Below are positions 8,330 to 31,005 of a stretch of 55,985 bases of DNA, piece after piece; the first letter of the stretch is position 1, and every line of letters begins with the position of its first letter. The translations under genes and the position numbers were made by a program. Below the pieces are notes generated by a model. The model did no database searches and was not told the origin of the DNA. It saw only the letters and a list, made by a program, of their open reading frames with translations. Origin of the DNA: Kalaharituber pfeilii (taxonomy: Eukaryota; Ascomycota; Pezizomycetes; Pezizales; Pezizaceae); contig WHUZ01000167.1 of NCBI GenBank assembly GCA_015179045.1, positions 1-55,985 of the forward strand. The letters are read 5' to 3'.

Positions 8330-8386
8330 ACCTCGCCATAGCCTATCAGGCGGCACGCGAGTAATGATATAAAAAAAAAAAAAAGA
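8330..8386 (+). mobile_element. Micro-retroposon type 2 (copy D), 57 bp
   Basis: The unit begins ACCTCGCCATAG, has a hairpin (outer stem CTCGC/GCGAG, inner GCC/GGC), then GTAATGATATA and poly(A). An 11-bp target duplication GAATACCAGCA lies at 8319-8329 and 8387-8397. Confidence 0.85.
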
Positions 8387-8830
8387 GAATACCAGCAGGG
8401 GGTATGAGTGATAATGTAATGGAGGTAGTAAATGTAGAGACTAAATGTAGAGAGTTACCGTCCGCCAGGCCAAAAAGATACTTGACTAGCGATGCTTACT
8501 AGTCTATTGTGTAGCTCAGATAGTACTCATTTATACGACTGCAACGCTATGGGCTATCATATATTGCTCATATCATGTTTGCATCTACCAACCGCCCGCC
8601 TATAGTTGCGGTGAGCCCATAACAGATAGCAGACGGTACTAGTGGTGCATAGCAAGTATAAGTGACAGTGCGTATGAATGATAGCAGGCTTGGAGTAACA
8701 GCTGGTATGAATAATAGCAATAATATCAACACTGTTATAGAAGTTGCAGCGCTATCATCTGGAGGAGTAGTAATCTGTTATTCTGTTATTCATTTTTCTG
8801 TTCCCTTCTCACTTATATCCTATGTTTCTA

Positions 8831-8894
8831 GAACCTCGACATAGCCCATAGGGCAGCATACGAGTAATGATATTAACAAAAAAAAAAAAAAAAA
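8831..8894 (+). mobile_element. Micro-retroposon type 2 (copy E)
   Basis: Same unit as at 8330: ACCTCGACATAGCCC, inner stem GCCC/GGGC, outer CTCG/CGAG, then TAATGATATTAAC and poly(A). I see no clear target duplication, so the left end is set by alignment to the other copies. Confidence 0.75.
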
Positions 8895-9133
8895 GATAGT
8901 TGGCTAACAATGTCCGCTAGTTCTCTGCACAATTCATAACTATGACTATCATATATGACCATCCTATCGCATACATGTACTCAGTACGTATTTGGCTGCG
9001 TACTGCCCTTATGTAAGTATTGTGCGCTCCACTCAGCACTTGCACTGGGTGAGCCTTAATATGTAATACATATTTGTAAACTCTGTTCAGCAATGTGCTG
9101 AGTGGGCCTGCCTTCAAGGTCACAGGTCATCAT

Positions 9134-9188
9134 TTTTTTTTTTTTTTTTTTCACGTGACCCCGCTTGCAGCTGTTCGCCATGGCAGGG
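9134..9188 (-). mobile_element. Micro-retroposon type 1 (copy B), 55 bp
   Basis: Poly(T), then CACGTGACCCCGCTTGCAG...CCATGGCAGGG, with a perfect 13-bp target duplication CACAGGTCATCAT (9121-9133 and 9189-9201). In sense it starts CCCTGCCATGG, the same first base as copy A at 871. Confidence 0.88.
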
Positions 9189-9345
9189 CACAGGTCATCA
9201 TAGTCATTGTAGGTAGAGTGTCAGTGAGCGTTGCATGCATAAGATATACAAGTATTATAGCAATAAGCATCACAATCAGTAACTCTATTCTTACTACTCT
9301 ATTGTTCTCATGCCCAGATAGCAACCCTATAACTTCATTATCTAC

Positions 9346-9510
9346 CGTTGGAATCGCTGGCTGAGGAAGAGGACCACGCTGGTTGAGGAGGGGAAGAAAA
9401 CCAGCTCGGCGGTTGTATACTTGGAAAAGGAGACGGATGTTGAGAGGGTGAGGCTCGGGGGACGTTGGCTCAGATCGGCCCGGTACGAGTCGGAGAGGGG
9501 ACGGAAGTAG
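9346..9510 (+). pseudogene. Possible LINE ORF1 fragment
   Basis: A short plus-strand open stretch reads WLRKRTTLVEEGKKTSS, then AVVYLEKETDVERVRLGGRW and RSARYESE before a stop at 9508. The pattern (basic helix, VVYLEK strand, then GGRWxRxxRY) resembles the nucleic-acid-binding region of ORF1 proteins of fungal Tad1-type LINEs. I know of no functional role for such a piece alone and see no start codon or poly(A) tail linked to it. It could be a truncated LINE remnant. The similarity is from memory of the family and is weak. Confidence 0.35.
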
Positions 9511-9620
9511 GAGATACCGGGACCGGGACTGCCACCCGCATCATGGAGAAGTTTCGCGGGCACTACATGTAGTTAGGAGTAGATAGTTTGGGGTTCGACT
9601 TCTTTTTTCACTTTTAATAA

Positions 9621-9681
9621 AACCTCGCCATAGCCCTTTGGGCGGCATGCGAGTATTGATATAACAAAAAAAAAAAAAAAA
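9621..9681 (+). mobile_element. Micro-retroposon type 2 (copy F)
   Basis: ACCTCGCCATAGCCC-TTT-GGGC, outer stem CTCGC/GCGAG, then GTATTGATATAAC and poly(A). This is the best-paired copy. The target duplication is ambiguous in this AT-rich context. Confidence 0.8.
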
Positions 9682-10177
9682 TAATCATTACGCAGTTCAC
9701 AACTATGGCAGAGAGTAATGTCAGGATAATTTCGCAAAAATGCAAGATTGGCAAAAAAAAATATGCAGTATTAGAATTTATAACTTAAACAAGTAATTTT
9801 CAAAAATAGCTAAGTAATGCCCGCAGGTGGCTTGAAACTAGGGCACAGACTATGTCTTGGTGATAACCACCTGTCCCTACTTGTCTAGCGTTAGGAAAAA
9901 TGCATGGGCATTGTGGGTGCTACCATTACAAAAAAATCTTCTGCACTTTCCTTCCTGTGCGTTGCCATATTACTGGCAGATCAAGTGAAAGCACTCTCAG
10001 ACAAGCGGAGGCTACCGGTATCTGGCAATTCCATGGCCAGCTCGGACTCAAACTGAGGCCTAGGCTGAGACCAGGCGATCATAAGTGGGAAAAGCGGCCA
10101 GTGTGCGTACTGGCAGAAAGTGCCTGTCCCGAGAGGTTTTGGGTTCGGCGGCTATAGGTCGAGCACTATGGCGGCGG
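9682..10177. other. Unassigned sequence before 5' LTR of element A
   Basis: No gene recognised. From about 10141 it has an imperfect tandem duplication of roughly 38 bp (GGCTATAGGTCGAGCACTATG and GGCTATGGGTCGAGGACTACG, both here in outline) that leads into the LTR. The exact inner end of the LTR and its primer site could not be placed. Confidence 0.4.
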
Positions 10178-10487
10178 TGGTTCGGCGGCTATGGGTCGAG
10201 GACTACGGGGGCGGCGGCTCGGCAGCTAGGGATCACGGACTATAGTAAGGGTAGCAGCGGAGGAGTAGGAGAAACCAGACGGGTCTATTGATTAGCAAGA
10301 CAACGGACAAGGAGAAGAAGAGCTATCTATAGAGGCGGGCTTGGGGCCCTTATATGCTAGGGAATTGACATAGAAAGGGAATACAGGACTATAATGATAT
10401 GAGAAAGAGAATCCGGAATGCAAGAGCGGCAATGGTGATGCTAATATTGGAAGGCATATCAATGAGCTGTCAGAGGGCTAATCAACC

Positions 10488-11729
10488 AGCCTGAAAGCTT
10501 CAGTGGAATGGTAGCCTCAGACCCAGACAGAGAGGGGGAGAGGGGGAGGGACTGGAGAGACTTCAGCTTGGGTTATGCTACAGACAAAAATGATGGATTT
10601 GAGTCAGTAGCTGGAAAGATTGCCAGCACTCTCGAGGTCGATGAGGAGGGGAGAGTGTCCTGGGGACGAGATGTACACCTACTGCAGGCAGACATTGAGG
10701 TCATTGACCTCAAGCTGTGCAAGGAAGACACCCCAGCCAAATGGGAAAAGGCCATCAATGAGGCTAAGAGTGACTCGGTAGCTATTTTCACAGATGGCAG
10801 CCGCAGTGCGGAAGGCGGTGTTGGTGGCGGATGGTGCTGGAGGCAGCTGGTAGCAGGTGAGTCAGAAGGGTCCCGGTGGGTAGGCACAAAAGCAACTGTG
10901 GGACGGCGAGGTCTCAGGAATGAAGAGTGCCCTTGAAGCAGTTGATGGCAGTGAAAAAGTGCTACTGCTCGCAGACTCTCAGGCAGCTATCAGTGCAGTC
11001 CAGAAAGCAGGAAAAACTGGCAAGGCAAGGACTGCAGATCTATCACGGGTGATAGAGCTGATTGCAGAGAGGCGGCAAAGGTTAAGGGAGGCGGATGCAG
11101 TGAAGCTGGCATGGGTCAAGGCCCACGTAGGGATAGAAGGCAATGAGAAGGCAGATGAGTTGGCCAAAGAGGGGGCCAAGTGCATGAGGTATGATGGGCA
11201 GGCCACTGAGGGTGGGCTGCGTCAAGAGTTAGTTCGAAAAAGAAAAGAGGAGAGGGAGCATGCAGGGTTTGGGAAGGGCAAATTCGTGAAGTGGGGCAGG
11301 AGAGCACTCACAAATTACACTTGGCTGCGGACTGGAAAAGGCGGAGCTATGTGGAGGAGGATGGTCAGTGGCGAGGAGGTACAATGTACATGTGGTGAGG
11401 CATGGAGTGCTGAGCATGTGGTGTTCAGGTGCACCGAACTGGAGCGACCCCAGAGGAAGGACAAAGATGGGGCGCATGTCACCTGGCAGTCCTGGGAGGA
11501 CCTAGAGGAGAAAGGGTGGAAGCAAGAAGGTGTGGAGGGCGACCCGGTCGAGTACTGGTTTGCCTGCCTCGATCTGGGGTAGCCGGGGATGGAGAGCACT
11601 GAGTGCTCAAGATGTGCATGTAGATTCCGTAGTTAGGTATTCCAAACCTGGCCCGGGTATATGGGTCCCTGCCATAGGCTGATAGCCTGTATGCGGGGTT
11701 ACGTGAATAAAAAAAAAAAAAAAAAAAAA
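10488..11729 (+). mobile_element. 5'-truncated LINE inserted in the 5' LTR of element A
   Basis: The unit interrupts the LTR between AATCAACC and GGACC, as shown by the uninterrupted copy at 303-320. A minimal AACC duplication is compatible (10484-10487, 11730-11733), although poly(A) makes it ambiguous. It ends with the hairpin tail CCCTGCCATAGG...GCGGGGTTACGTGA and about 23 A. The coding part is described at 10508-11582. Confidence 0.88.
10508..11582 (+). pseudogene. LINE ORF2 fragment: RNase H and zinc knuckle, one frameshift
   Basis: Two overlapping plus-strand frames (10508-10936 and 10920-11582) form one LINE ORF2 C-terminus. They have an FESVAGKI region, RNase H with IFTDGS (Asp), LADSQAA (Asp) and KAHVGIEGNEKADELAKEGA (His, Glu/Asp), a Cys/His knuckle (CTCGEAWSAEHVVFRC), and a tail TWQSWEDLEEKGW. 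A small deletion near 10900-10920 breaks the frame at the second catalytic (Glu) motif. The reverse transcriptase is missing by 5' truncation. It is homologous in order and motif to the LINE at 2276-3642 but clearly diverged in sequence, so it belongs to a different subfamily. Confidence 0.85.
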
Positions 11730-11870
11730 AACCGGACCAGGACGGCTTGTCAAGCCTTTCCGAGTAAGCTATTAGTAAGGTCTCACCTTCCGACTTGGCA
11801 CGTCAGCTCGGCTTGACTTGTCAGCTGCGGAAAAGGATGATATCGATGCGTGCGTAGGTGGGCTGTGACA

Positions 11871-12072
11871 TCAAGACTTAAAGTATATTACTATTTAACT
11901 ACTATACTTTAGTACTATATAAGTACTCTTAATACTTAAAATATATAAGCTAAAATAAAGTATTTAACTATAAATAATTAAAGTCTACTTTTAAATATAT
12001 ATAAGGTCTTTTATTTAATTAGATATAAGTATGTTACTATATTATTAAGAAGTAATTTTAATATTATACTAT
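11871..12072. other. AT-rich tract
   Basis: Extremely AT-rich, TA-dominated sequence without coding potential. It appears continuous with 12909-13059 and 13781-14149 once the two solo LTRs are removed. Probably an old repeat degraded by RIP-like mutation (inference). Confidence 0.6.
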
Positions 12073-12903
12073 TGTCACGGCCCGCTCCCTACAGTCTCCG
12101 TACACTAAGCCACGACCGCCGGCAAGCCACGACCGCCAGCAAGCCATGACCACCAGCAAGCCATGACCGTATCCCGCCTCCCAGTATAGCCCGCCTGCCA
12201 GTATGGCCCGCCTGCCAGTATGGCCCGCCTGCCAGTATAGCCCGCCTGCCAGTATAATCCACCTGCTAGTATAGCCCGCCTGCTAGTATAGCCTGCCTGC
12301 CAGTACGACCCGCCTGCTAGTATAGTCCGCTTGCTAGTATAGCCCGCCTGCCAGTACGACCCGCCGGCTAGTATAGCCAGCCGGCTAGTATAGCCCGCCT
12401 GCCAGTACAGCCCGCCTGCTAGTATAGCCCGCTCACCAGTACAGCCTGCCTGCTAGTATCGCCGCCTGCCAGTATCGCCCGCCTGCCATGAAAACTCTGC
12501 CTTCGCTACTCTGTTCTTACTGCTGCCCTCGTCGCTGCTTCTACCTTTGTATTATGCTTCTTAGGTAATAAACCTATCATGTATATATAGGCTCTATCTT
12601 GCCCTCATGTAAATAGTTCCTTCTCTCCTTGTCTGTTGTCTTGTCTCCTTAATAGACCCATATGGTTCCTCGCAGTCTATATGTTCTTGTTATTCTCGTC
12701 AATCCCTAGATCCAATTCAGTATTTGGTCTTCTCTGCCTTTTCACCATAGCCTGCCATCGCCGTTGAACTGGAACCGCTGAACTGCTCCTGTCAAACCTC
12801 TCCTGTCAAGTTTGTCAGGCCTCTGCCATTCAGCGCTTGCAAAACTACTGTTACCCTGAACCGGCCGTATCCCTTAGCAGCACCAGCTTGCCGCCGCGTG
12901 ACA
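12073..12903 (+). mobile_element. 831-bp solo LTR with internal minisatellite
   Basis: The ends are TGTCACGG and CGTGACA, with a 5-bp target duplication ACTAT (12068-12072 and 12904-12908). It contains a TATA-type site (TGTATATATAGG) and a following segment (TTAATAGACCC...GGTTCCTC) that resembles the corresponding part of the element A LTR, suggesting a related gypsy family. The 5' half is a GC-rich minisatellite (12175-12490). Confidence 0.88.
12175..12490. repeat. Minisatellite, about 17-bp unit, within solo LTR
   Basis: Around 18 imperfect copies of the unit AGCCCGCCTGCCAGTAT, with variants such as GACCCGCCTGCTAGTAT. It is strictly confined to the LTR. Confidence 0.9.
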
Positions 12904-13064
12904 ACTATTATATCATTATAGTATCAAATTATAATTATATAACTATATGGTTAAGATATAATTATAATACTATATAGTTAAGAAATAGTACCTTCTATAT
13001 ATCTAGATCTATTTTTAATAAAACTATTTAGTTTAATAGTATATTTATTCTAAGTATTATAAAA

Positions 13065-13775
13065 TGTTACGGGCGTGAGGGGCTCGGCTCCGATGGGCGC
13101 TGGAAGACACCGGATGTTACGGCTACGGAAGAGTGTATCCGGCGGGTCGGAGTCGCTACGGAGGTTTGTGTACGGCGGTGCCGGAGTCGCCACGGAAGTG
13201 TGTATACGGCGGGTCGGAATGGCTACGGAGGTGTGTATACGGCGGGCCGAATGGGCAGCTGTTGGGCGTGGAGCGCGCAGCGGACCGGAGCGATTCACGG
13301 GCGTAGAGAGGAAACGATAGGTTTCAGAGTTTATAGAGAAACTTAGAACACCGCTAGTGTCTTGATTCTTTTAACTATGCTATCGCCAGCCGGCGCTTAT
13401 ATAGACTTCAGCGCAGTCATACATAACTAGTCAACAAATGAATAAATGACTGGCAACGTAGCAATTCCTTATCAATGCCAATACCTGTGGTAATAGGCAC
13501 ACGTAACAGAAACATGCGAAAATAGTACAGACGCAAGATAATGCTATGTACTAGTGCATGTGCACATATATTAGCTTTTAATAAGCCGAGTGCATTGCAG
13601 ACCTGGAGGTCATACCAAAAGCGTTCGACACACACTTCCTTAGCACTACCCTATTCGATAAATAAATGAATCTACTGGCAAGCCTAACGGGTGATCAGTC
13701 CGGTCTAGCTGGTGTTATGTAACGATTGAGGGTAAGTGTTCCACAACGCGGGTAAGTCTTACCGTAGCCGTAACA
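13065..13775 (-). mobile_element. Solo LTR of family B (copy B1)
   Basis: 711 bp from TGTTACGGGC to AGCCGTAACA with target duplication TAAAA (13060-13064, 13776-13780). It is homologous, in reverse orientation, to the LTRs of the gypsy elements at 30332 and 47604. In minus sense it carries TATATAAG followed about 48 nt later by AGCGGTGTTC. It contains about four copies of a 33-bp repeat around GGCTACGGAGGTGTGTATAC. Confidence 0.9.
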
Positions 13776-13780
13776 TAAAA

Positions 13781-14149
13781 TATCTATACTAAAGAAACTA
13801 TTATAGTATATTAATACTATTAAGTTATATATATACTACTAAAATATATAAATATAACTATTCTATATTAAATACTATTATAGAAGATATATTCTACTAT
13901 ATATAATAGATTAGCTTTGCTACTATATAATAAGTATAATATTATAACTTATCTTACTATTATACTATATTAATACTACTATATTATGTAAATGCTACTA
14001 TATACTACTAGTACTATATATAGGAGATTAAACTTACTACAATACAATAAGTATAATACTATAACTATGACTCACCTTATTACTATACTACTATAAATAC
14101 TTAGAAGCAAACAGATACTCATAACTTAGTTTAAACCAACCTATAGTAC
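13781..14149. other. AT-rich tract
   Basis: TA-dominated low-complexity sequence with no ORF, like 11871-12072. Nothing else seen. Confidence 0.6.
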
Positions 14150-14700
14150 TGTAACAATCCAACCCGGACCCCTCGCCCAAGACCCTCCAGCTCCGGTCCT
14201 ATACTGGCAACCAACGTACTACTCGCCAGTACTCGTACACGTGCAGCTGACCCTGACACCCTTGCAATTCACCGCACTCCTTCTAGCACTCCGATATATA
14301 TCCCTGTACCTGTGAGCACGCTTAAGCGACATGGCCGGCAGCATCCCGGTCATTGCTTAACAACCCGAACCGAAGAACCTACCAGAACCTGCTAGAAGAA
14401 CCCGGATCCCCAGAACCCGCCGGAAAGCCACAGAACCTACCGGAAAGCCGTAGAACCTGCCGGAAGCTATAGAACCTGCCGGGAGCTATAGAACCTGCCG
14501 GAAAGCCGTAGAATCTGCTGGAAACAGGTATCGCCGAGCTTATTCCCGGATATTCTTGACGCTTCTACCTGCTTCCAGTCATTCCTTGGTCATCCATGTA
14601 CTTCCTGTCGTTTCCTTTGTTTTCCATGTACTTCTAGTCGCTTCTCGGTTTTCCATGTACGTCGTTTGTTTGCTTGTTTGCTTGTTTGCTTGTTTGCCTG
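14150..14700. repeat. LTR-like remnant with minisatellite and GTTTGCTT microsatellite
   Basis: It begins TGTAACAATCC and is GC-rich against AT-rich flanks. It holds a TATA-like site near 14292 (GATATATATCC), about seven imperfect copies of AGAACCTGCCGGAAAGCC at 14380-14530, and four copies of GTTTGCTT at 14658-14696. I could not find a matching CA end or target duplication, so calling it an LTR is inference from composition and the TG start. Confidence 0.4.
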
Positions 14701-14719
14701 GATTTTCCACCAGGAGGTA

Positions 14720-14917
14720 AGGCTCTAGCAGGAGGGTTTTTATAAATTTCATAAGCATCTTTTCATTATAGCAAGAAAATTTGTATGTAGTGAAATAACT
14801 TCCTCTAGATTTTTTTTCATTATACCATATGGTGTGATTTCATTATAGGAAGATCAAATTGTATGAGGATGGAAATCCGAGACCGTGGTGTGTTCATTAT
14901 AGCAAGGTCTGACTGTA
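14720..14917. mobile_element. Truncated pogo-like (Tc1/mariner) terminus
   Basis: The segment ends TTCATTATAGCAAGGTCTGACTG followed by TA, which in complement begins CAGTCAGACCTTGC. That is the typical terminus of pogo/Fot1/Tigger elements, which duplicate TA. CATTATA-type motifs repeat four times inside. The opposite terminus and any transposase are absent, so only one end is supported. Confidence 0.45.
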
Positions 14918-16030
14918 GCTTTTTGCAATTTGGGCCGGTCATCAATTGCCGGCCACAAATGGCTAGACGTACAGGGATATGAAAAGTACGAATGTTCCAC
15001 TTACCTTACCGTAGAGAATTGATAACCACCGCTATTATCTCCAATGGACGCTTGTTACTGCGGCACAGTACCTCTGACCTGACTCTTTCAGGCAGGGATG
15101 GCTAACTGCACTGCAGTTCATAGGCATGCTTAGCCGACAAATTGATCAATATCTACAAGGGTGAGCTGCGGACTAGCCCTTCGGTCCGATTTGTTCCCAC
15201 GCAAAACCCTGGCAGTAGCGTTAACTGACTTTTACCTGGAACGATATACTCAAATCTCGATCTCTCATAGCTTGGGGCTTATCGTTCTGAATATCTTACG
15301 CGCTGACCAGTTCCAGCCTTGCGATCGCCATACCCCAGGGCGGCATGCGATTCATGATATAAAAAAAAAAAAGCTAGGGCTTGCTTCGTCGCACGTAGGC
15401 TTCTGCTGTCCGATTGCGAATCAAGTGAGATTCCGGATTCACGTGCGGTCCAGTCCACGTTACATGTAGTTACAAACAAAAAAAAAGACATAAAGAAACG
15501 AAGTGTGTGGAAAATAGAACAGAGTCGAATCAACGAGGGTGTAAAGTATCCAGTTTTAGCAATGATGTAGTAAACATTTCATTTTTTAGCAGGATCAGAA
15601 CACACTATGGTAGGTATCACCAATCAAAATTCGGCGAAAGGCAAGGGGGTTTTTATTTCTTTTTTTCTTTCTTTGGGTCCCGTAACCTCGCCTATAACTA
15701 CAGGGAAGCGAGGCAAGCGGTTACCCACCCCGCTGGGAATGCTCCGGCTGTGTCTCCTCATTTTCCGGAATAACCGTTGAAAATTGGCTTGTGAGAGACT
15801 ATTATGTGGTAAGAGGCCTGCTGCCATAAGGTACTGTAGAAGCCGAACCTGCGTAGCACAATCCATGGTTATACATCTTCAGGGAAAACTAGCAAGATAA
15901 TGCGCCAGGCTTGATAATCTTAAGAGCCGCGATGGGGCTTTCACTTTAGTGTCCGCTCTCTACCAAGAAAAATATCCTCCGCTTCCTTCACGTTTGAAAT
16001 ATGACAAAATACTTAATCCAGCACATGCAA
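14918..16030. other. Intergenic sequence downstream of the GTPase gene
   Basis: Apart from the micro-retroposon at 15322-15372, I see no supported gene. Several short open frames overlap each other on both strands and show no recognisable motif. The last 80 bp lie directly after the stop codon of the minus-strand GTPase gene and would be its 3' UTR. Confidence 0.5.
15322..15372 (+). mobile_element. Micro-retroposon type 2 (copy G)
   Basis: GATCGCCATACCCC...GGCGGCATGCGATTCATGATATA and poly(A). The outer stem is ATCGC/GCGAT, a compensated version of the CTCGC/GCGAG stem of other copies. No clear target duplication. Confidence 0.72.
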
Positions 16031-17152: not shown

Positions 17153-17364
17153 CTCGTTCTTGGGGAGGGCGCAGGTCAGATTATTGCTGGGTTCTTGGTT
17201 CCGTTGCGTGGAGAAGCAAGTAAGACGAACGGCCAGAAGAATTGAATTGAATTGAACAACCAACGAGGGGGTCAGGGTTAGGTGTGCGGATGCACTGGCC
17301 TTGTGCCCACCCACTGCCTGCTAGCATAGAACACGGGATCGACGCCCGCCTGCTCTTTCAGGTA

Positions 17365-17490
17365 GGCTGTGCCAGAACCAATTTACACCTTCTGTTTATT
17401 GGAGATGAGAAAATCAGAGTTTGCTACTCGCGCGAAGGCCAAAAAGTATTGGAACGGCTCAGAGGTGATGTCTTATGTGACATATTTCGG

Positions 17491-17521
<31 letters not shown>

Positions 17522-18080
17522 CAATATCATTCATCGCTTGCCGCCCTATCGGCTATGGCGATATATTTCGGCATGCAGAGCGTTCAAATTTCAAATATTC
17601 TTGGGAGCGTCCCAATTCACAGTTTCGGTCTAGCCCGAGTCAGGTTGTTACTACTCCTGGCTTCAATCGAATTGGTACAAGCGACGTACATATCCTCTTT
17701 ACTCTCGCAACGTGGTTTGAGGAGCAATACGAGCAAGGCACACGCTGCCTGGGCTGATTTAAATGCATCGCACTGCACATGAGCGTGGAAAAAGCACAGC
17801 GGAACGCAATCTCACAATGCCTACTGGCGGGGGAAATATGAAAAATGTGATTATGGTGGTTATAAGATGAGAAACCTGTGTTTCATTTAAATGCAGACAG
17901 ATTAGTTTGTACGTCCATTAACCCGGATCGATGAAGTGCTCAATTGGAGAGCAAGGTGAACGGTCCTCCTGGACTCCCAAGCATTGTGGCATAATCTCGT
18001 CCAGAGTGACAATATCCACGGAAGATATGATGGCACCCTTGCTTATACAAATGACGGCCTCAAAAACATTTTCTGTTTTG
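17365..18080 (+). pseudogene. Decayed third copy of the P-loop GTPase
   Basis: No P-loop exon is recognisable, but ordered pieces match the gene at 19462. TPGFN with TLATWFEEQYEQG (about 17650-17740) matches DTPGFD and DLTTWLGMQYKQG. ENMKNVIMVVIR with a stop replacing Trp, then EN (about 17830-17880), matches EENMKNLVLVTTRWEN. LWHNLVQ...GRYDGTL (about 17980-18035) matches FWHTLLQ...ERYDGSL. Stops and frame changes between the pieces make it non-functional. A type 2 micro-retroposon (17492-17562) interrupts it. It is divergently oriented to the gene at 16031-17152 and tandem with the gene at 19462. The limits are approximate. Confidence 0.75.
17492..17562 (-). mobile_element. Micro-retroposon type 2 (copy C), 71 bp
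   Basis: Poly(T) of about 29, then CAATATCATTCATCGC...GGCTATGGCGAT. It is bracketed by a 10-bp target duplication ATATTTCGGC (17482-17491, 17563-17572). Stem ATCGC/GCGAT. It sits within the GTPase relic. Confidence 0.85.
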
Positions 18081-20746: not shown

Positions 20747-22557
20747 GACAGTGAGAGTTGGGTAATAGAGTATAAGCGAGATGCTTCCTTTTACAAAAGA
20801 AAAACGAGGGGTCCATTGCTGACCTTCTATATATGATCCTTTTGCGACTTGTATAACTATTGTGTCTAAACCGTATCCAAACTTTGCTAAAAGGTGGATG
20901 TGAGAGCATGAGGTAGTAGTATGCCATACTGCAGACGTTCTTCAAGTGACTCGGTCTACCTACGATACTAGTCTAATTATTTATTTTCTTTTCTTTTTGA
21001 TCACGTAACCCCGCATAGAGGCTCTCAGCCTATGGCAGGACCCCTTTATTAACCAGGGAGAGGTCTGTGACACCGAAATATGAGCCGGAGCACTGTGGAA
21101 GGGTTTTCTTCGTTAACAAGAAATTTTGTATTGTTCAGTGTAGGTTGGTTTTCTCAGAATCTCTCGTGCGTCCCCCCTCTCATACATACATGACCTACCC
21201 TCCACTTCCCGGTTTCGGCAATCAGCCTGCTTCCGGTAACATGCTTGCACGCGGCGCCACAGACTTCCCCCCTTCGACAATTTTGAACCGCGGACTCAAA
21301 ATTGTCGAACCTGTGTGCGGCTCCAATTATACACCTCCTATCCATCACCTTACACACCCATCCAATCCTTCGCCCAATTTCATCAACCACTGTCATTATC
21401 ACCACTTGTCGCCACCTCCTCTCCGTCACTTTTGAACGCCCCCCCGTTTGCCAGTGTCCATCGCTTTCTATACCCATCCAGTCCTTTCGCCCCATTCATC
21501 AACCACTGTCATTCTCACCACTTGTCACCACCTCTTCTCCGTCACTTTTCAGCCGTCACCGCGACAACCATACCAGGAAAAAAGACAGCTGAACGAAAAA
21601 GAAGCCAGGAAAATAGCCTCCTCTCCCTCGATCGAAGACACGGCGGCTCCTGCAGCCTCCCCCACCCGATCAACGCCGACCACAACCCCCGAACCAACCC
21701 CGACACCCGACCCCGTCCCCCGGGATGTCTCCGGACAGTCCTTTTGGACTGTCCTGACTGTCCTGACTGTCCCGAAGGTTGCATAACTGACTGTCCCATC
21801 TTGCATATGGTGCGGCTGAGCTCACTGTCTTGGTGTGGCAGACTGTCTTGGTGCGGCAGATATTTTCGGTGCAGGGTAATCAGTGCGCCTAACGTGGGAA
21901 ATTTTTCTTTGATAATTCGCACTGTAGCTACTGGTTTTGAGATTTTCATTTTTGCAAGACTCCAACACAATTACAAAGGCTTCACGCACTTTACATCTCA
22001 GATATTTTCCAGCCGATACATATATTCATATAGTACTCACGAGTCCTTATTTAATTTTTCTGCCCTACACTTGCTTGGCGCTTACTAAAATGTCACTCTC
22101 CACTGCAACCAGTACCTTGGGTGCGAAACAGACCTGGACTCCACACCTGAGCCTTCCAAAGACGCTTGTTTCAGTAGTAATAAAGGTTGTAGAAGAGATG
22201 CCTGAATTATATTCTGAAGACCCTATGGATGGTGAGCAATATGCATGGCCAAATATGGCTTTAGATAGACTCCAGGACTTGTGGTAAAGAAAGGTTATAT
22301 ACGCTATGGATATGTACATCATGGCAAGCCCCGAGATACTAGAAAGCTAGATGCAAAGAATTCTGAAGGTATGTCAATATATTTTAATTAAGACTTATGT
22401 ACTAATATATATATAGTACAGTGCAGACACCAGACCAACACACAAGCCAAAGAATGTCTATGGGCAATATCTACCAATTTGTAAGTAGATATAGATAGTA
22501 GAACAGATACTTGGGTGCTTACGATATCAGATAAAATCCATACTCATCCTTTGGTAA
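20747..22557. other. Mostly non-coding stretch after the GTPase gene
   Basis: It contains a LINE tail (21001-21050) and pyrimidine-rich sequence with a roughly 120-bp imperfect duplication around 21340-21550 (blocks such as CATCAACCACTGTCATT, CACCACTTGTC and TCCGTCACTTTT recur). An open frame of 66 codons at 22090-22287 starts MSLSTATSTLG. It has no motif I recognise and may be the end of a lost gene. No other feature is supported. Confidence 0.4.
21001..21050 (-). mobile_element. LINE 3' tail fragment
   Basis: In sense it reads CCTGCCATAGGC, loop, GCCTCTATGCGGGGTTACGTGATC, the same hairpin as the tail of the LINE ending at 11729. The poly(A) has decayed (TTATTTTCTTTTCTTTTT in complement). 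No target duplication found and the 5' limit is unknown. Confidence 0.65.
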
Positions 22558-23215
22558 CTCCGACAAGCCATAAAGATACACAGGGCAAAAATCACCGAAA
22601 CAGCAGCAGAGCATGGATTCGAAATTGACCCAAACAAGTCCGAGACACTAATAATTGGGGTAAAAGGCCCTGACTATAGGCTAACCGGATTGACGGTAGA
22701 TTGGGAGCTAAAATTTACTCGACATCATAAGAAGAGACTATTTCTAGGGAAGGCAGCATGGGGAGTGGCATCGAGACTAACTCGCCTCACACCAGGCAAG
22801 AAACGACAGATATATACAAGCATCGCACGCACAATCGCCACATGGGGATGCTGGGCATGGCAGGACTACTCAAGACAGTCTCCACCAGCAACCAAGATCA
22901 AAGACATAGAAAAATGGCAATACACAGTAGCACAGAAGATTACTGCAGCCCCGTGGGGTACCAGGCGAGACGTAGTCGAAGGAATAGCCAACCTAGAATC
23001 AGCCCAAACATTCCTAGAAGGAGAACGCCAGAGGGTAGAAGCCAGGGCCCTACGGTTCCACGATGAGATAATCCAAAACAGGGATAATGAGTGCAGGTAC
23101 CTACGGGGGTCTCTCTCACACAACAACCCACTACCACTAGCCATCCTACCAGCACTGCCTGCGGACGCAGACAAGCTCGAGTTCGAGAATGCCATAGCCA
23201 ATACCGAGGACGAGG
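22558..23215 (+). pseudogene. LINE ORF2 fragment (end of RT and connector)
   Basis: The continuous plus-strand frame carries the RT C-terminal part (AAEHGFEIDPNKSETLIIG) and the post-RT connector (LTPGKKRQIYTSIARTIATWG, then IEKWQYTVAQKITAAPWG). In LINE proteins this lies between the reverse transcriptase and RNase H, as in the start of the ORF at 2276-3642. The catalytic YADD region upstream and the RNase H downstream are missing. The frame merges at about 23218 into a minisatellite, so it is truncated at both ends and lacks poly(A). Confidence 0.75.
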
Positions 23216-23218
23216 GGT

Positions 23219-23425
23219 GGAGTGGTCAGTGCCGATGTGGTCAGTGCCGATGCGGTCAGTGCCGATACAGTCAGTGCCGCGTGCCTGTGTGCGGTCGGTC
23301 TCGCGTGCGTCTGTGCGGTCGGTACCACGTGTGTGTATGCGGTCGGTGCCGCATATATGTATGTGGTCGGTGCCGTGTGCGGTCGGAGCCGTGTATCTGT
23401 ATGCAGTCGGTGCTACACGTCTTTT
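23219..23425. repeat. Minisatellite with 14-bp and about 25-bp higher-order units
   Basis: It starts with four copies of a 14-bp unit (GGTCAGTGCCGATG) and grades into about six longer units built on GCGGTCGGTGCC plus GTGTGTGTAT. Abrupt boundary with the LINE fragment. Confidence 0.85.
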
Positions 23426-23444
23426 ACTCACATAGGCTGGCCAG

Positions 23445-23640
23445 GCCTATAAGCCATTTTCTGGCTGGTGAATTATTGCAGTGGGGCATCGAACCGAGTA
23501 ATAGATCTGACTCCAGTTTGGCATTGGTATTGGGTTCGGCAGGCATGTCGATTAGCTTTCGCCTTTTTGGCGACATATGTTTGCGTAGCTTCTTGCCATC
23601 CATCCCAGTAGGAGTTCCTTAATATCATTTCTTGGGTGCG
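23445..23640 (-). pseudogene. Possible integrase N-terminal relic of element E
   Basis: Short minus-strand pieces (GWMARSYANIC, then a Cys-containing stretch) follow the RNase H relic in the right order for a Ty3/gypsy integrase zinc region. The match is weak and depends on position more than on motifs. Confidence 0.3.
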
Positions 23641-23649
23641 ATGCACGCC

Positions 23650-24960
23650 ACAGTGGCTCGCGACCTCTAGGTCTTCCTCAACGAGGTCGCCGTTGATGAG
23701 TAGCTGCCCATCTTAAGAGCTGGATTTCCAAGCCTGTCGGTTCATCACCGGACCGACCCGATATGGCGTCGGCTTTCCCATTATCACTCCGTTGCAATAG
23801 ATAATAGTAAAGTCCAGCTCGCATATCTTTATGTGCTGGTTTGCTTGCCGGGAGTTAAGCTTCTGCTTGGTGGTGATCCATATAGACATCGACATGTACA
23901 CCCTATAGCAAAGTGTACTATTTGAAGCAGTCAACGATGCGAACAGCTCCTTGTCATGGTCAGTTTCGTTCAGCTGTAGTGAGGGCTGGTGAGTGGAAGT
24001 TGACTGGGTGTAGCGTTTTAGTTCTGTTCTCCTCGTAGTATTGGGAGGGAGTGCCGGCAAAGGCTTGGTACGATGCATCGGTTTCCATAATCGTCCTCAG
24101 AGTTCTATCTCATGGGCGGAGCACTGATGTATCGGTTTCCATGATCGTCTTGAGGGTTCTATCCCATGATCGTTTCTAGGGTTCTACCCCATGATCACCT
24201 CCAGGGTTTTATTCGATGATTGCCTTCAGGGTTTTATCCCATGAGCGCCTCCAGGGTTTTATCCCATGATTGCCTTCAGGGTTTTATCCCATGAGCGGAG
24301 TACTGGGGCGAATAGGAATGCTTGCTTGAGTTCATCGAATGACTGCTATTGTACATCAACCCCATGAAAATGGTACGTTGTCCATGAGGGAGGTAAGCAG
24401 TTCGCTCTGGAGGCGGTAATGGTTCTTGATGTAACGGTGTAGTAGTTGGCCAATCGGCAATGGTGCTAAGCTTGTGGCTATTAATGGTATGGCCAAGAAG
24501 GACTATCTCCTGTACGGCTAGTCTGTGGTCAAGTGGTAGTTGTAGGACCTGTTCCACGGTCATACTACGTCAACGGTATCCTTCCAGAATTTCGTCACAT
24601 TATTTCCTGAAAACTCGTCGGTGCAAGTTCAAAAGCATAACGGTATATTTGGACAGGCCTTCGTCGCCTGACTGATTTCGAATGAGGCGTTCTAAAGGTC
24701 CAACTGGGTGAAGTGTTCACCAGGGATCTTTTTCTGAAAGGTCTGGCATAAGTGGGAGGGGGTACCGATTCGGTACCGTGATCTTGTTGAGTCCCCTCCG
24801 CAGGGCTTCATCTTCCCAGGCCATTAGGTACTTCAGCATTAGGGTCGTTAAGTGGGATCTCGTAGTCCCTGGATCGGCGGGGGTAGTAGTCTGCCTGCTT
24901 GCTTCTCAAAGAATACTTGAGCGTAACGTTTATAACGTTCGCGTATGTTAATCGTTAGTA
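23650..24960 (-). pseudogene. Element E reverse transcriptase and RNase H relic
   Basis: From high to low coordinates come RT pieces (GLNKITVPNRYPLPLM, later LLDHRLAVQ-like and LGHTINSHKLSTIADWP), then a tandem-repeat expansion, then RNase H (ETDHDKELFASL, the linker KLNSRQANQH, LDFTIIYCNG). Frames change repeatedly and there are several stops. This is a minus-strand Ty3/gypsy element distinct from A by sequence. Its 5' LTR is at 26039-26862. No 3' LTR is visible, because the element is cut at about 23430. Confidence 0.72.
24085..24298. repeat. Tandem repeat of about 30 bp within element E Pol
   Basis: Six to seven imperfect copies of the block TTTATCCCATGATTGCCTTC plus AGGG. It lies between the RT and RNase H parts and reads in places as repeated HGI-type residues, so it arose from coding sequence. 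Confidence 0.88.
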
Positions 24961-25099
24961 GTACATTGCCTTCCTCCCTCCGGGAGTCCCTTTCTAAATC
25001 CAAAACAGAAACAGGTGGTAGGAACAGAAACAGGCGGCAGAAACAGAAACAGAGACAGATGACCGAGAGTCAAACAATCTCATCATAAGGAACAACAAA

Positions 25100-25990
25100 A
25101 TCAAGGGAATCATGAACCAAATGCTGGTTTTTTGCCATTAACAGAGAGACCTTTCCTTCCCAACCAGAATAATCCCAATAACTCTTCTCTAGTCCAAACA
25201 TCCAGACATTCCGTATCAGAGTTAAATGCAGTACTAGAGATTACATTACCTGATTTATTCCGAATGCCGGAAAACACAAATGCAGTATTCAAAACCTTAA
25301 TTCCTTTCAGGGAGCTCCTGTCTCTCTGCCATACATTTACGTGTCTTTTGGTAGTGCGTTCTACCTGTCGATGTTTGCCCTTATCGGCGGAGGGCTTGGA
25401 GGAGTAGGTGGCAATGGATACAGCTTTTTTCGGCTGCTCTACCTTGGGCAGAGGTGAGCAAGACCTTGAGCGGGAATGGTGACGGCGACGGCGACAGGAC
25501 TCTGAGGGGCGGCAGGGCTCTGAGCAGCGGCGGGACTCCGAGCAGCGGGACTCTGAGCGACGGCGGGACTTCCGAGCGACGATGGGACTCCGAGCAGCGA
25601 CAGGACTTCCGGGTGGCGACGGGACTTCCGAGCAACAGCGGAAGGGTCTCTGAAAGTGGGAAGCTCACACGTAGGGCGTGCGGGGTTGGGTATGCAAATG
25701 TGGGGAGGCATGCTACCATCCGTTGAGCTTTTGAAGCTGCTTCACCTTGGGCGGAGGTGAGCAGGGCATTGTGTAGGACTGGCAACGGCGGCGGTGGGAC
25801 TCTAAAGGGCTGCGTAAGTGTTTTCGACCGTGGGGAGCTCAGATATGGGGTGTGCGGGGTTGGTAATCGGTTTCCACAAATTCTCCGGACATTGCGACAT
25901 CCGTCATCGGTGAGGAGGAGTATGCTGGGAGCGGTTGCAGTACTGGGAGTGGTGGGGAACCGACTGTTGGGGTTCCATTCGTAATAAGAG
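25100..25990 (-). pseudogene. Element E gag region with internal repeats
   Basis: The minus strand directly after the 5' LTR and its primer-site-like sequence has open frames rich in Pro/Ala/Ser (for example SPAAAQSPAAPQSPVAV), with no clear capsid or zinc knuckle. A 24-bp GC-rich unit around CGAGCAGCGGGACTCTGAG is repeated at 25500-25620, and a larger imperfect duplication links about 25440-25700 with 25740-25890. By position it should be gag. Sequence alone does not prove it. Confidence 0.45.
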
Positions 25991-26038
25991 AAATAATTAA
26001 GAGGGAGAAAAGAGAAAGAATGGGAACGAGCGGTGTAA

Positions 26039-26686
26039 TTTTAGCGTAGGCGTCGCTGGGCTCGTGAGAGTGGCACTGAAGCAACTCCGGGATTCACGAA
26101 GGCAGCGAAGCGGACGGCAAAAGGTTATGCAAGAGCATTGAGTGAGAGTTCAACTTAGAACATCGCTAGTGTCTTGATTTCTTCTAGCTATCTATTCGGC
26201 CCGTTTATATAGACTTCTGGGCTATCAACATGATATGACAATGACATGATGAATATAGATAAGATACGTAGATAAGGAAATGTAGTAGAAACATACATTA
26301 GGAAGGTCAGTAGCGTCTAATGCATGTACGCATATTACTTTGTAAACCATGTGCAGTTGCTAGTCTGTATGACTTATTGCTTGACACACACTTCTGTACG
26401 CGACCGCTGTTTCTCCCCAGAAGGCTTTAGAGAATGGGGGGATATGGGGAATAACTGGAAAAGGACAGCAGAGAATGGGGAGGAGTGGGATGAGTTAGAA
26501 AGGTTCTTCTCCGAGATCAGGTTCTAGGGCACCGTGCGGTTTGCCGTCGGGGAAGTTTGCTTGCCGGAGTGTGAAAGTGTAGAGAAGAGGGGAGGGGGGA
26601 GAGGGGGGTTTTGTTAAGCCTGTCTCCGGGCTTCGAGGGCTTGCCCAGGGACCCTGCCATGGCCACGTACTACAAGCGGGGTTATA

Positions 26687-26731
<45 letters not shown>

Positions 26732-26862
26732 GCTGTTTCTCGGGCCCAAACTGTTCCATGCGTTGCCTAGTAGTGATCAGCTACATGTTCAGCACATGGC
26801 TTATACGGGACTGGCGGTGCTTCTTGGGGCAGTATCCCATAAGTCTTACCTCAGCCGTAACA
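26039..26862 (-). repeat. 5' LTR of element E (family B-related), split by a LINE
   Basis: In minus sense it starts TGTTACGGCTGAGGTAAGACTT at 26862, like family B LTRs. It contains the TATATAAAC promoter segment and the downstream site AGCGATGTTC, and ends near 26039 just before TTACACCGCTCG. That post-LTR sequence is identical for ten bases to family B elements. The LINE at 26416-26729 is inserted in it. The inner end is degenerate, so 26039 is approximate. Confidence 0.7.
26416..26729 (+). mobile_element. 5'-truncated LINE, 314 bp
   Basis: Perfect 12-bp target duplication CCGCTGTTTCTC (26404-26415, 26730-26741). The first codons read PEGFREWGDMGNNWKR...LERFFSEIRF and stop, matching the last residues of the LINE ORF at 2276-3642 (PEGWEKWEDADEKKW...LEEFFGSLKV). 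A 3' UTR, the hairpin tail CCCTGCCATGG...GCGGGGTTATATG and about 37 A follow. Confidence 0.9.
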
Positions 26863-27000
26863 GCCATCTACAAGTTGCTACTTGAAAGTTGTTGTCAGTA
26901 ATAAGTTGCTACTTCTTATGCATATACTAGAAGATAATATAGACAGTTTAATTAATAATTCACTATACTTTTAGACTATTATAGTTAAATCCTACTATAG

Positions 27001-27053
27001 CCATATGCTATAAGTGGGGTTATATGATTTAAAAAAAAAAACAAAAAAAAAAA
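27001..27053 (+). mobile_element. Micro-retroposon type 1 (copy J), 53 bp
   Basis: CCATATGCTATAAGTGGGGTTATATGATTT plus poly(A) (given here as the full 30-nt unit in two parts: CCATATGCTATAAG and TGGGGTTATATGATTT). Flanked by the 9-bp duplication CTACTATAG (26992-27000, 27054-27062). It matches the last 30 nt of the LINE at 26416 and starts within four bases of copies A and B. Confidence 0.78.
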
Positions 27054-27830
27054 CTACTATAGTTAAGAATACTAATTTGTAATTATAACTTAATTATTGT
27101 TAACCAAAACAGTAGAAGAAAATTACTAAATATACTTCTAATATTCTTTTTACTCTAAGTAAAATTTTGAAGTGTTATTTTCATAAGTAGAGATTTCCAA
27201 AATTCTCCTCTCTTCTAGTATTAGATTGTAGGAGTAATACAGATTTCATTAATACTAAGAATAAAAAGTTTAGTACTTGTATTACCAAAAACAGTAGATA
27301 ATAAGAGCTCTGCAAGTACCAAGTATCCACTTTAAACAACCTCATTATAATAAATCTTATTAAGATGAAATTTCATGTTCTTATCTAGGTACCTATTCTT
27401 TTCTTCATTATACATACATATGTCAAAAGATTAAATATTCTTATTCTTATAATAAAAGCAATACTAGTCAATGTACTAACTAGAAGAATAAGAGTAAATA
27501 TAGTAATGTATATTTAAGAAAGGTACAAAAATAGTTGAAGTTCAGAAATAGTAGGCTAGGCAAAATTGTAGAGATAAGATAGCTGAGATATAAGAATGTA
27601 CTACTAGAAGAAGGAAAAATGACCAGCTTGGTCATACTATACTTGGAGGTAGTAATAGGTATAGACAGAGTTACGTTAGATAGGAAATAGTTAAGAACTA
27701 CTCAATACAAGCCAGACAAATAAAGGAAATAGACTGTATTGACTAGTATGTATATTTTACCTATACCATATATGAGTATTGCAGGTACTATATATATTTA
27801 GTAATAGTTAATTTTTTTTCTTTTATAAAT

Positions 27831-27883
27831 ACCTCACTATAGCTCATAGGGTACCATATGACTAATAATATAAACAAAAAAAA
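27831..27883 (+). mobile_element. Micro-retroposon type 2 (copy H), mutated
   Basis: ACCTCACTATAGCTCATAGGG, then CTAATAATATAAAC and short poly(A). It is aligned by position to the other copies; G-to-A and C-to-T changes have weakened the stem. No target duplication seen. Confidence 0.6.
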
Positions 27884-28050
27884 GTACTATAATCTGTATA
27901 TAGATAACTGTATAGGAGAATAGGAGACTATAGAAATTACTTAACTGGCTGTATAATAGATCACTATTATATTAAATCATAAGTGATTATATAGGAGGGG
28001 GAGAGAAGGTTTGCAGAAGTAATAGACTGGGCAGTAGAGTAACTAGTTAT

Positions 28051-28748
28051 TGTTACAGGCATGAGATGCTAGGCTCCAGTAGGCGCTGGAAGGCACTGGA
28101 TATTACAGCTATGGAGGTGTATACATGGTGGGCCGAAAGGACCATAGAGGCAGATATGCTGCGGGCCGGAATGGCTATGGAGGTATATATGCTGCAGGCC
28201 AGAGTAGCTATGGAGGTATATAGGTGGTGGACTGGAATAGCTTTGGAGGTATATATACAGTAGGCAGAAAGGATAGCTGTTTAGTATAGAGCATACAGCA
28301 GAGCGAAGTGATTCACGAGTGTAATGAAGAAATAATAGGTTTCAGAGCAATAGAGAACTAGAACACTGCTTGTGTCTTGATTCTTCAACTGTGCTATTGC
28401 TTGTGCTTAAATAGACTGAGCACATTATACATAACTAGGCAAGCAAATAAAGAAATGGCAGTTCAACAATACCAACAATCATAACAAAGAAACATGCAAC
28501 GTAGTACAGATGCTAGATAATGACATGTACTAGGGCATGTGTATATATTAGCTTCATAAACCAAGTACTAGGTATAAAGAATCTTACAATCAACGGTGAC
28601 ATATACTTCCTTAGTACTACCCTATTCAAATATAAAGAATCCTCTGCCAAGCCTAATAGGTAATCAGTCTAGTCTAACAGTACTAGCCTTACTAAGGATT
28701 CAGGATAAGTATTTCCCTGCTTGGGTAAGTCTTACCTTAGCCATAACA
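28051..28748 (-). mobile_element. Solo LTR of family B (copy B2)
   Basis: 698 bp, TGTTACAGGC to AGCCATAACA, with target duplication GTTAT (28046-28050, 28749-28753). It is homologous to B1 (13065) but with many C-to-T and G-to-A differences. Confidence 0.88.
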
Positions 28749-29276
28749 GTTATATTTTCACTTTATTTCCTTACTATATTTTACTATATCTTAATATATA
28801 ATACAATTTAATATACTTTCCTACTAAAACTGAGTAAATGAGACCCTATATATTTCTATAAACAGAACTTATTTTTTTATATAACCTTTCGGAGATTTAA
28901 AGTAAGTATTATTCTTTAGATCCTGTATCTTTACTTTTAAAAAAAAGTAGCTATGGATAAATTATATCTTTACATATTTGTATATAAGTTTTAGTACATG
29001 TTTTTATAGTAAAGTTGCAGATATAGGAATCTATTTACTATACCTGCAATTCATTTAATACAAATATTTAAATACTTTATTTGAGTAATTTATTCTTATG
29101 GAAATATACAGGAATAGTAATTATTAAGTTGTTCAAAATATGTTTATTCTTATAGAAATATTGTATATAAATAGTATCAGAAGAGGATCTGAAAATATAT
29201 ATCAGCATAGGAACTATATAATAGATTAAAATAGTCTAAATAAAGTCAAGTATGTTAATATATAGCTAAGAGAGAC

Positions 29277-29515
29277 TATCATGACAGTATAACATGGCAG
29301 TATGTGAGCGTACCTAGAGCAGAGCTAAAATGCAGGAAACTACGAGGTCATATGATTAGCCCACTCCTGCTATGCCTGAAGACTTAGCACGAACTGGTAC
29401 CAAGAGCTCATATGCATGGAGACTCCTATATATCCCAACTGTACTACCAGAGATTACCAGTAGTTCTACCTTTTGGTATAATAGTTTGTAAGATGGTCAG
29501 TTGCAACCTGTAACA
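29277..29515 (+). mobile_element. Solo LTR of the TRIM family
   Basis: It starts TATCATGACA and ends CCTGTAACA, with target duplication GAGAC (29272-29276, 29516-29520). It aligns with the LTRs of the TRIM at 46939: CTATATAT, then TACTACC, CAGTAGTTCTACCTTTTGGT and GTCAGTTGCAACC. The TG end has become TA, as in the TRIM's second LTR. Confidence 0.8.
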
Positions 29516-29888
29516 GAGACCCTTTAGTTCTAAGACCATGGCCATTGGTATGATAGTGCTAACAAAAAGTAGTATATTTACTTCACTAAAATAATGTATG
29601 AGAATCCCATATAAATAAATGCTAAGATATTATTACAAATTTTGCTATATTATAATTCCTTGAAAATGCATTCTTTGAGTGAGTAGAAGTATGAAATATA
29701 AAGAGTAAGTATGTATTTAGTATTTCTAAATAGTGCTTACAAAGTTCTGCTCTAGTGGTTGAGGTATATACTCTTCTGCGTAGCTAGTTTTAGTAGAAAA
29801 GTGTATTGAATTATAGTATATATCAAGATATAGTGAAACACAGTATCTGTTACTTATTTTTTCTATTGATTATTATTCATATATCTAA

Positions 29889-29945
29889 ACTCTCACCATA
29901 ACCTGCTAGATAGCATGTGAGTAATAATATGAAAAAAAAAAAAAA
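29889..29945 (+). mobile_element. Micro-retroposon type 2 (copy I)
   Basis: ACTCTCACCATAACCTGC...GCATGTGAGTAATAATATG plus poly(A). The outer stem CTCAC/GTGAG is a second compensated variant, and the inner TGC/GCA pair has replaced GCC/GGC. No clear target duplication. Confidence 0.72.
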
Positions 29946-30993: not shown

Positions 30994-31005
30994 TTACACC
31001 GCTCC
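30994..31005 (+). other. Putative primer-binding site of element B3
   Basis: TTACACCGCTCC directly follows the LTR. It lacks the TGG start of tRNA-primed sites but ACACCGCT is complementary to AGCGGTGT within the LTR, fitting self-priming. Confidence 0.55.

What the first reader, a model, noticed from the sequence alone, without database searches (positions are those of the whole stretch)
8330..29945. Seven copies of a hairpin micro-retroposon (type 2) with covarying stems
Units at 8330, 8831, 9621, 15322, 17492 (minus), 27831 and 29889 are about 45 nt plus poly(A), and all begin at the same place (A)CCTCGCCATAG. The two clearest have perfect 10- and 11-bp target duplications. The outer stem is CTCGC/GCGAG in two copies, ATCGC/GCGAT in two and CTCAC/GTGAG in one, so two base pairs change in a compensated way. 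An inner GCC(C)/(G)GGC stem is kept in most. Random 5' truncation of a LINE should not give a constant 5' end. Either this is an ultra-short SINE-like RNA mobilised by a LINE, or reverse transcription stops at this structure. Known precedent (family knowledge): stringent-type LINE reverse transcriptases such as UnaL2 recognise a 3' stem-loop.
Basis: partly seen in the sequence, partly recalled or inferred. Interest (0 to 1): 0.88.

Follow-up and report, generated by a model that had tools for sequence, protein, structure and literature searches.

The report
Solo copies of a LINE recognition hairpin
In this probably fungal genome a predicted 37-letter RNA hairpin that forms the end of several families of LINE jumping genes also sits alone at an estimated two thousand places, most likely because the copying enzyme often stops just after it has copied the hairpin that it is predicted to hold on to.

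Summary
All seven hairpins are in the window, but they are not one short element. Genome-wide there are at least 7,893 copies against 0 for the reversed pattern. The hairpin is the 3' end of LINEs with open ORF1 and ORF2 frames and of a non-autonomous gag-like element. Of 184 sampled copies with poly(A) and flank, 44 are 'solo': a 9-16 bp target-site duplication ends within -2..+3 nt of the hairpin start; exchanged flanks give 0.75 per run anywhere in -45..+6. Many others run upstream into LINE sequence with scattered 5' ends. The 44 solos carry 42 different hairpins that intermix with LINE-terminal ones, so they are not one SINE lineage. A second hairpin type, on a LINE whose ORF2 is 28% identical, behaves alike. 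Rarer copies start inside the hairpin. I read this as target-primed reverse transcription that often ends once the recognition hairpin is copied; ready-made short RNA fragments remain a live rival. In the window two of the seven are proven solos, and the CTCAC/GTGAG 'covariation' is probably C-to-T decay.

The parts
8331..8367 (+). type 2 hairpin, solo copy (37 nt) followed by poly(A)
   Evidence: 60.8 bits; TSD GAATACCAGCA ends 1 nt before it
8319..8329 (+). 5' target-site duplication of the solo at 8331
8387..8397 (+). 3' target-site duplication of the solo at 8331
8834..8870 (+). type 2 hairpin, probably the end of a 5'-truncated LINE
   Evidence: no TSD found; upstream resembles the tail before the hairpin of L037
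9350..9622 (+). 3' part of the repeated gag-like (RT-less) element that ends in the hairpin at 9623
   Evidence: 40 further matches scored of 540 candidates, 29 of them starting at window 9350
9623..9659 (+). type 2 hairpin, terminal part of the gag-like element
15323..15357 (+). type 2 hairpin (35 nt, A-U outer pair), origin unresolved
   Evidence: 33.7 bits; no upstream match to other held copies, no TSD of 9 or more
17527..17563 (-). type 2 hairpin, solo copy (A-U outer pair) followed by poly(A)
17563..17572 (-). 5' target-site duplication GCCGAAATAT of that solo (its last base is column 1 of the hairpin)
17482..17491 (-). 3' target-site duplication of that solo
27832..27868 (+). decayed type 2 hairpin at the end of a longer element
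   Evidence: E 0.75; 400 bp upstream 79-80% identical to three other copies; 82 of 95 changes C>T or G>A
29891..29927 (+). decayed type 2 hairpin at the end of a LINE tail
   Evidence: (47 nt upstream match the tails of L008, L017, L098)
9151..9188 (-). type 1 hairpin, solo copy with abutting 13-bp TSD
834..871 (-). type 1 hairpin, solo copy with abutting 15-bp TSD
2060..2097 (-). type 1 hairpin at the 3' end of a 5'-truncated LINE (TSD 1,545 bp upstream)
2279..3703 (-). LINE ORF2 fragment with RNase H, upstream of the hairpin at 2060-2097
11667..11706 (+). type 1-like hairpin with longer inner stem, behind a LINE RNase H frame
10884..11579 (+). LINE RNase H frame upstream of the hairpin at 11667
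26652..26689 (+). type 1 hairpin at the end of a LINE truncated to 236 bp

Best explanation
The hairpin is the 3' end of several LINE families, and its solo copies are most likely LINE insertions in which reverse transcription ended right after the hairpin had been copied. Shown: LINE-terminal hairpins, solos with abutting target-site duplications and poly(A) tails, and the sharp peak of 5' ends at the stem base. Inferred: the LINE reverse transcriptase holds this hairpin through a tail-binding region, starts at the poly(A) on nicked target DNA, copies tail and hairpin, and must then let go of the hairpin to go on, much as RNA polymerase leaves a promoter. Many complexes fail at or before that step and are joined to the target, giving hairpin-only copies and rarer partial ones. 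Those that pass go on processively, giving the thin spread of longer copies.
For: Target-site duplications: 44 of 184 copies end at -2..+3 of the hairpin start, 7 more elsewhere in -45..+6 (0.75 in total per run with exchanged flanks); 7 of the other 140 fit with mismatches (control 0.15). In long context, 49 of 80 copies have a TSD of 11 or more: 19 at -3..+3 (2.7 per nt), 30 spread over 8 kb at 0.2 per nt or less. Type 1: 11 of 34 have an abutting TSD, all at -3..0; 5 a distant one; 18 none found. Solos come from many sources. Copies that begin inside the hairpin, so that the template was seemingly recognised but copied only in part: 8 with TSD among 204 sites found by the 3' box, 13 of 39 loci chosen for a missing 5' part (at least one doubtful), 5 of 6 loci read of the 20. 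One copy joins the 3' half of a type 1 hairpin to the 5' half of a type 2 hairpin on a LINE tail, as if the enzyme had changed template there (L020). In two zebrafish LINEs a 3' stem-loop is needed and is bound by ORF2 protein (PMC4176376, passages).
Against: No RNA or enzyme was studied. A 5' end of RNA at the stem base would give the same peak. Inside the hairpin no clean rule holds: starts at columns 19-21, within a paired arm, are about as frequent as at the apical loop, so structure does not explain every end. 18 of 34 type 1 copies and 31 of 80 long-context type 2 copies have no TSD found at the thresholds used. TSDs beyond 2 kb (6 seen, 1.8 expected from controls) may be partly chance. 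In type 1 the pairs do not covary. The cDNA of type 1 would carry an A-C mismatch where the RNA has a G-U pair, yet its solo share (11 of 34) is not lower, so folding of the cDNA itself is unlikely to be the cause.
Confidence: 0.5

Rival explanations
1. The template is already short: LINE RNA is eaten from its 5' end, or cut, up to the hairpin that the bound reverse transcriptase protects, and the protected 3' fragment is then copied to its end.
For: The peak lies within about 3 nt of the stem base in both hairpin types, as expected of a protected RNA end; run-off explains the sharpness; 5'-to-3' decay would also explain the thin spread of longer copies.
Against: Copies that begin inside the hairpin would need templates that have lost the recognition structure; one probable template switch inside the hairpin.
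Confidence: 0.3
2. An ultra-short SINE: the hairpin is transcribed as its own small RNA from one or a few master genes and is mobilised by the LINE.
For: Short constant unit, TSD, poly(A), tail shared with LINEs.
Against: 42 haplotypes in 44 solos, intermixed with LINE-terminal hairpins; the same peak in a second hairpin type; both outer-pair classes (C-G 26, A-U 13 of 44) among solos.
Confidence: 0.1
3. Solos are merely the shortest members of a random 5'-truncation series.
For: A truncation series does exist, with ends from 18 nt to beyond 1 kb upstream and inside the hairpin.
Against: 2.7 ends per nt at -3..+3 against 0 to 0.2 per nt in the 200 nt before it.
Confidence: 0.06

Closest known systems
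Stringent-type LINEs with a 3' stem-loop (UnaL2, ZfL2-1, ZfL2-2)
   Same: Conserved 3' stem-loop before the repeated tail; stringent LINEs share the 3' tail with partner SINEs; in the ZfL2 elements the loop is needed for retrotransposition (PMC4176376, passages)
   Different: No report of a mode of insertions that consist of the stem-loop alone in the passages and listings seen; the requirement is untested here
MGL LINE and Mg-SINE of Magnaporthe grisea
   Same: Fungal LINE and SINE with similar 3' ends; template switching at set sites beside predicted hairpins (PMC2104539, passages); a LINE/SINE pair in the Tad1 clade is cited in PMC4176376 (passage)
   Different: There the enzyme is said to leave exactly before a GCC triplet and add another RNA; here the main end is at the base of the terminal hairpin and target DNA follows
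Plant L1-clade LINE/SINE pairs with a conserved 3' hairpin
   Same: About 50 nt of shared 3' end, putative hairpin with compensatory changes (PMC3747384, passages)
   Different: Different sequence and host; no hairpin-only copies mentioned in the passages seen

Membership tests
Stringent-type LINE 3' tail hairpin | conserved stem-loop at the very 3' end of an RT-encoding element | tested here: met
   L116 and L117: ORF1, ORF2 with endonuclease, RT and RNase H, then hairpin and poly(A)
Stringent-type LINE 3' tail hairpin | stem kept by compensatory change | tested here: met
   type 2: 2 of 9 pairs convincingly, covariation score above all 500 shuffles, but number of pairs changed on both sides (3) reached by 83 of 500 and number of pair types by 483 of 500; type 1: no covariation
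Stringent-type LINE 3' tail hairpin | same tail on a non-autonomous partner | tested here: met
   gag-like elements, in which no RT frame was seen, end in the same hairpin
Stringent-type LINE 3' tail hairpin | ORF2 protein needs or binds the hairpin | not testable with these tools
   needs a retrotransposition or binding assay
Tad1 clade of LINEs | RT phylogeny within Tad1 | not tested
   only domain order and probable fungal host fit (Tad1 architecture recalled); protein search gave 14 distant hits of 19-27% identity
SINE | own lineage descending from few master genes | tested here: not met
   42 haplotypes in 44 solos, nearest-neighbour test p 0.16
SINE | head from a tRNA, 5S or other small RNA gene before the LINE-like tail | tested here: not met
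   in solos the TSD abuts the tail hairpin, leaving no head; no Rfam match at gathering score in the window, no tRNA
SINE | TSD, poly(A), 3' tail shared with a LINE | tested here: met
Ordinary 5'-truncated LINE copy | 5' ends scattered without a preferred site | tested here: not met
   peak at the stem base

The most novel reading that the evidence does not exclude
LINE reverse transcription has a release checkpoint: the enzyme copies the RNA hairpin that recruited it, and about a quarter of insertion events end there, leaving a 37-nt fossil of each recognised hairpin. The genome thus holds about two thousand natural footprints of the RNA segment that the enzyme recognises, from many LINE families, readable by eye and by covariation.
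Probability: 0.4. Interest if true: 0.75.

Novelty: new variant of a known kind. Interest (0 to 1): 0.62.

Why it matters
Why most LINE copies are 5'-truncated is an old open question. Here one truncation class is the commonest, precise, and tied to the likely recognition structure, with two hairpin types on LINEs whose ORF2s are only 28% identical. If the reading holds, a genome becomes a map of where target-primed reverse transcription gives up, and sequence alone predicts which RNA segment each LINE enzyme binds. It also shows a very small retroposed unit, 37 nt plus tail, that repeat finders may well miss.

Tried and rejected
Ultra-short SINE with its own gene: rejected as main reading because solos are not a lineage. 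Covariation in CTCAC/GTGAG: set aside as probable C-to-T decay. 'Ends avoid paired arms, so the RNA was cut in loops': this looked good after (TSD ends at columns 9, 16-17, 23-25) but the patterns used left some columns unassayed; two added patterns found 6 and 20 further copies, and 5 of 6 loci read of those 20 have a TSD ending at columns 18-20, in a paired arm, so I dropped it. The GCC rule of M. grisea: the peaks do not lie there. Folding of the cDNA as the cause: not favoured, since type 1 has a G-U pair and no lower solo share. Similarity of the gag-like protein to ORF1: none found in the two pairs compared. Literature: the listings (titles, starts of abstracts) show no report of hairpin-only LINE copies; the library lacks most subscription papers. 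Not run: structure prediction, RT phylogeny. Rows dropped: 3 duplicate contexts of 192 hits and 5 without usable poly(A) or flank; 2 of 34 type 1 copies with a broken 5' arm before alignment; 4 of the 16 hits that looked like short deletions, all 6 and 14 of the 20 were not read. Alignment A1 holds only copies that fit a pattern with fixed core letters, so invariance of those letters is partly imposed. Copies without a found TSD are counted as non-solo, so the solo share is a lower bound.
Full report
What is there. The window lies in a 78-Mb assembly of 360 contigs. The host is probably a fungus: Gypsy-like and LINE frames, and AT-rich stretches whose changes are mainly C-to-T and G-to-A; this is inference, no call names the host. 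The motif CCTCGCCATAG occurs 3,377 times against 18 for its reversed control, and a 28-position hairpin pattern with up to 2 mismatches 7,893 times against 0 (a lower bound). A model from 64 copies finds exactly the seven copies of the finding in the window.

The hairpin. Outer stem of 5 pairs, internal loop CAUA / GGCAN, inner stem of 4 pairs, loop of 3. The copy at 8331 folds just so; the one at 17527 folds with a shifted inner stem, as RNAalifold also prefers for the alignment. Fold energies are only modestly better than shuffles (z -1.78 and -2.08, type 1 -0.58). Two of nine pairs carry the covariation: outer 2-31 (C-G 38, A-U 11, G-C 1 of 53) and inner 14-18 (C-G 38, U-A 10). The covariation score and the number of cells changed on both sides exceed all 500 shuffles; the number of pairs changed on both sides (3) is reached by 83 of 500 and the number of pair types by 483 of 500. 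Sliding the partner by 1 to 3 columns drops pairing from 95% to at most 47%. In the window a G5-C28 to A-U change sits in the block 27-31 kb (G+C 0.33), where two copies differ from relatives by 82 of 95 and 13 of 22 C>T or G>A changes; I do not count it.

Two kinds of copies. I sampled 200 kb of contig C2, the window, 20 stretches of 1.6 kb and 75 of 0.5 kb around pattern hits. Of 192 hairpins, 189 were distinct and 184 had poly(A) and flank. In 51 a duplication of 9 bp or more ends within -45..+6 of the hairpin start; 44 of these end at -2..+3 (3, 15, 9, 8, 6, 3 at -2 to +3), against 0.75 anywhere in that span per run with exchanged flanks. Seven of the remaining 140 fit with mismatches (control 0.15). 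In the 80 copies with long context, 49 have a duplication of 11 bp or more: 19 at -3..+3, the other 30 further upstream, from 18 nt to some kb; beyond 2 kb 6 are seen where controls give 1.8. The distant ones that I read are 5'-truncated LINE or gag-like sequences that end in the hairpin. Of 140 non-solos, 69 share their upstream sequence in register with another copy, against 5 of 44 solos. So the hairpin is a LINE tail, and about a quarter of sampled copies are that tail alone: 25 of 80 in the C2 tiles and window, 6 of 28 and 13 of 76 in the two sets picked by pattern. Applied to 7,893 copies, 44 of 184 gives roughly 1,900 solos, an extrapolation from a sample that was not random.

The LINEs. 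L117 holds ORF1 and an 1,151-aa open frame with endonuclease, RT and RNase H, then a type 2 hairpin with A-U outer pair; L116 holds ORF1 with zinc knuckles and a 1,248-aa frame, then a type 1 hairpin. The two ORF2 proteins are 28% identical. Type 1 hairpins (CCCUGC/GCGGGG outer stem) behave alike: of 34, 11 have an abutting duplication (all at -3..0), 5 a distant one, 18 none found. Type 1 pairs hardly vary, so covariation neither supports nor contradicts that fold.

One lineage or many. The 44 solos carry 42 haplotypes; 4 solos are identical in sequence to a non-solo; a solo's nearest neighbour is a solo in 29.2% of cases against 23.7% by shuffled labels, p 0.16. Both outer-pair classes occur among solos (C-G 26, A-U 13 of 44; non-solos C-G 104, A-U 30 of 140). 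Solos thus look drawn from the same pool as the LINE tails. This speaks against a micro-SINE with its own master gene.

Ends inside the hairpin. A search by the 3' box alone gave 204 analysed sites; 8 lacking a full hairpin have a duplication ending inside it, at columns 16, 16, 17, 17, 19, 20, 24 and 25. Genome patterns for one subfamily gave 1,236 full hairpins, 16 lacking the outer 5' arm, 19 lacking everything before the loop, 8 cut further in, 6 cut near the inner 5' arm and 20 cut near columns 20-21; all reversed controls were 0. Of 39 loci read have a duplication of 9 bp or more, ending at column 9 (3), 11 (1), 16 (3), 17 (3), 18 (1), 19 (1) and 23 (1); the one at 19 contains poly(A) and is doubtful. 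Of 6 loci read from the 20, 5 have a 12-14 bp duplication ending at columns 18, 18, 19, 19 and 20. Corrected very roughly for the letters that the patterns forbid, I put the density near 50 per nt at the stem base, 4-8 in the 5' half of the hairpin, 15-25 in its 3' half and about 1 just upstream (inference).

How it most likely works. The enzyme must see the hairpin to start, if these LINEs are like the zebrafish elements of PMC4176376 (passages). That is inference. The rival that the RNA itself ends at the protected hairpin explains the sharp base peak equally well and the inner ends less well. A single chimera in L020, whose hairpin is type 2 in its 5' half and type 1 in its 3' half behind a LINE tail, fits a change of template inside the hairpin.

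The window description was right about seven hairpins, stems and two duplications, wrong that all seven are units with the same start, and right that random truncation cannot explain the constant end. Novelty: a new variant of a known kind; the listings showed no earlier report.

Noticed in passing
L016:5750-6625 (-), L014:3842-4585 (-), L116:5219-5713 (+), window 9350-9622: Elements of about 1 to 1.6 kb carry a small conserved protein (motif like VVHGIALRKDLGKVRRWLE), no RT frame seen, and end in the same hairpin; no Pfam match for three such proteins and no similarity to ORF1 in the two pairs compared.
   Followed up: partly
L010:7432-8771 (+) and the 1,644-bp element of L016 (-): Two short elements share about 200 bp near their 5' ends (77-78% identical) but end in different hairpin types, as if tails had been exchanged.
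   Followed up: no
L020:9189-9226 (-): Hybrid hairpin, type 2 in its 5' half and type 1 in its 3' half, behind a type 2 LINE tail: a probable template switch.
   Followed up: partly
window 27000-31000: AT-rich block (G+C 0.33) with copies decayed by C-to-T and G-to-A changes, as after repeat-induced point mutation.
   Followed up: partly
G000 contig C1, 70-500 kb against the remaining 2.5 Mb: Listed hairpin copies are dense in one stretch of the contig and sparse elsewhere, as if the genome had repeat-rich and repeat-poor compartments.
   Followed up: no
L003:7233-7268 (+): One type 1 copy has a TSD that ends 36 nt before the hairpin, just before a second possible hairpin of the LINE tail; a single case.
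   Followed up: no
L016:3065-3101 (-) and L004:7677-7713 (-): Hairpin copies lie inside LINE reading frames and are translated as runs of K or F beside a recurring peptide.
   Followed up: no
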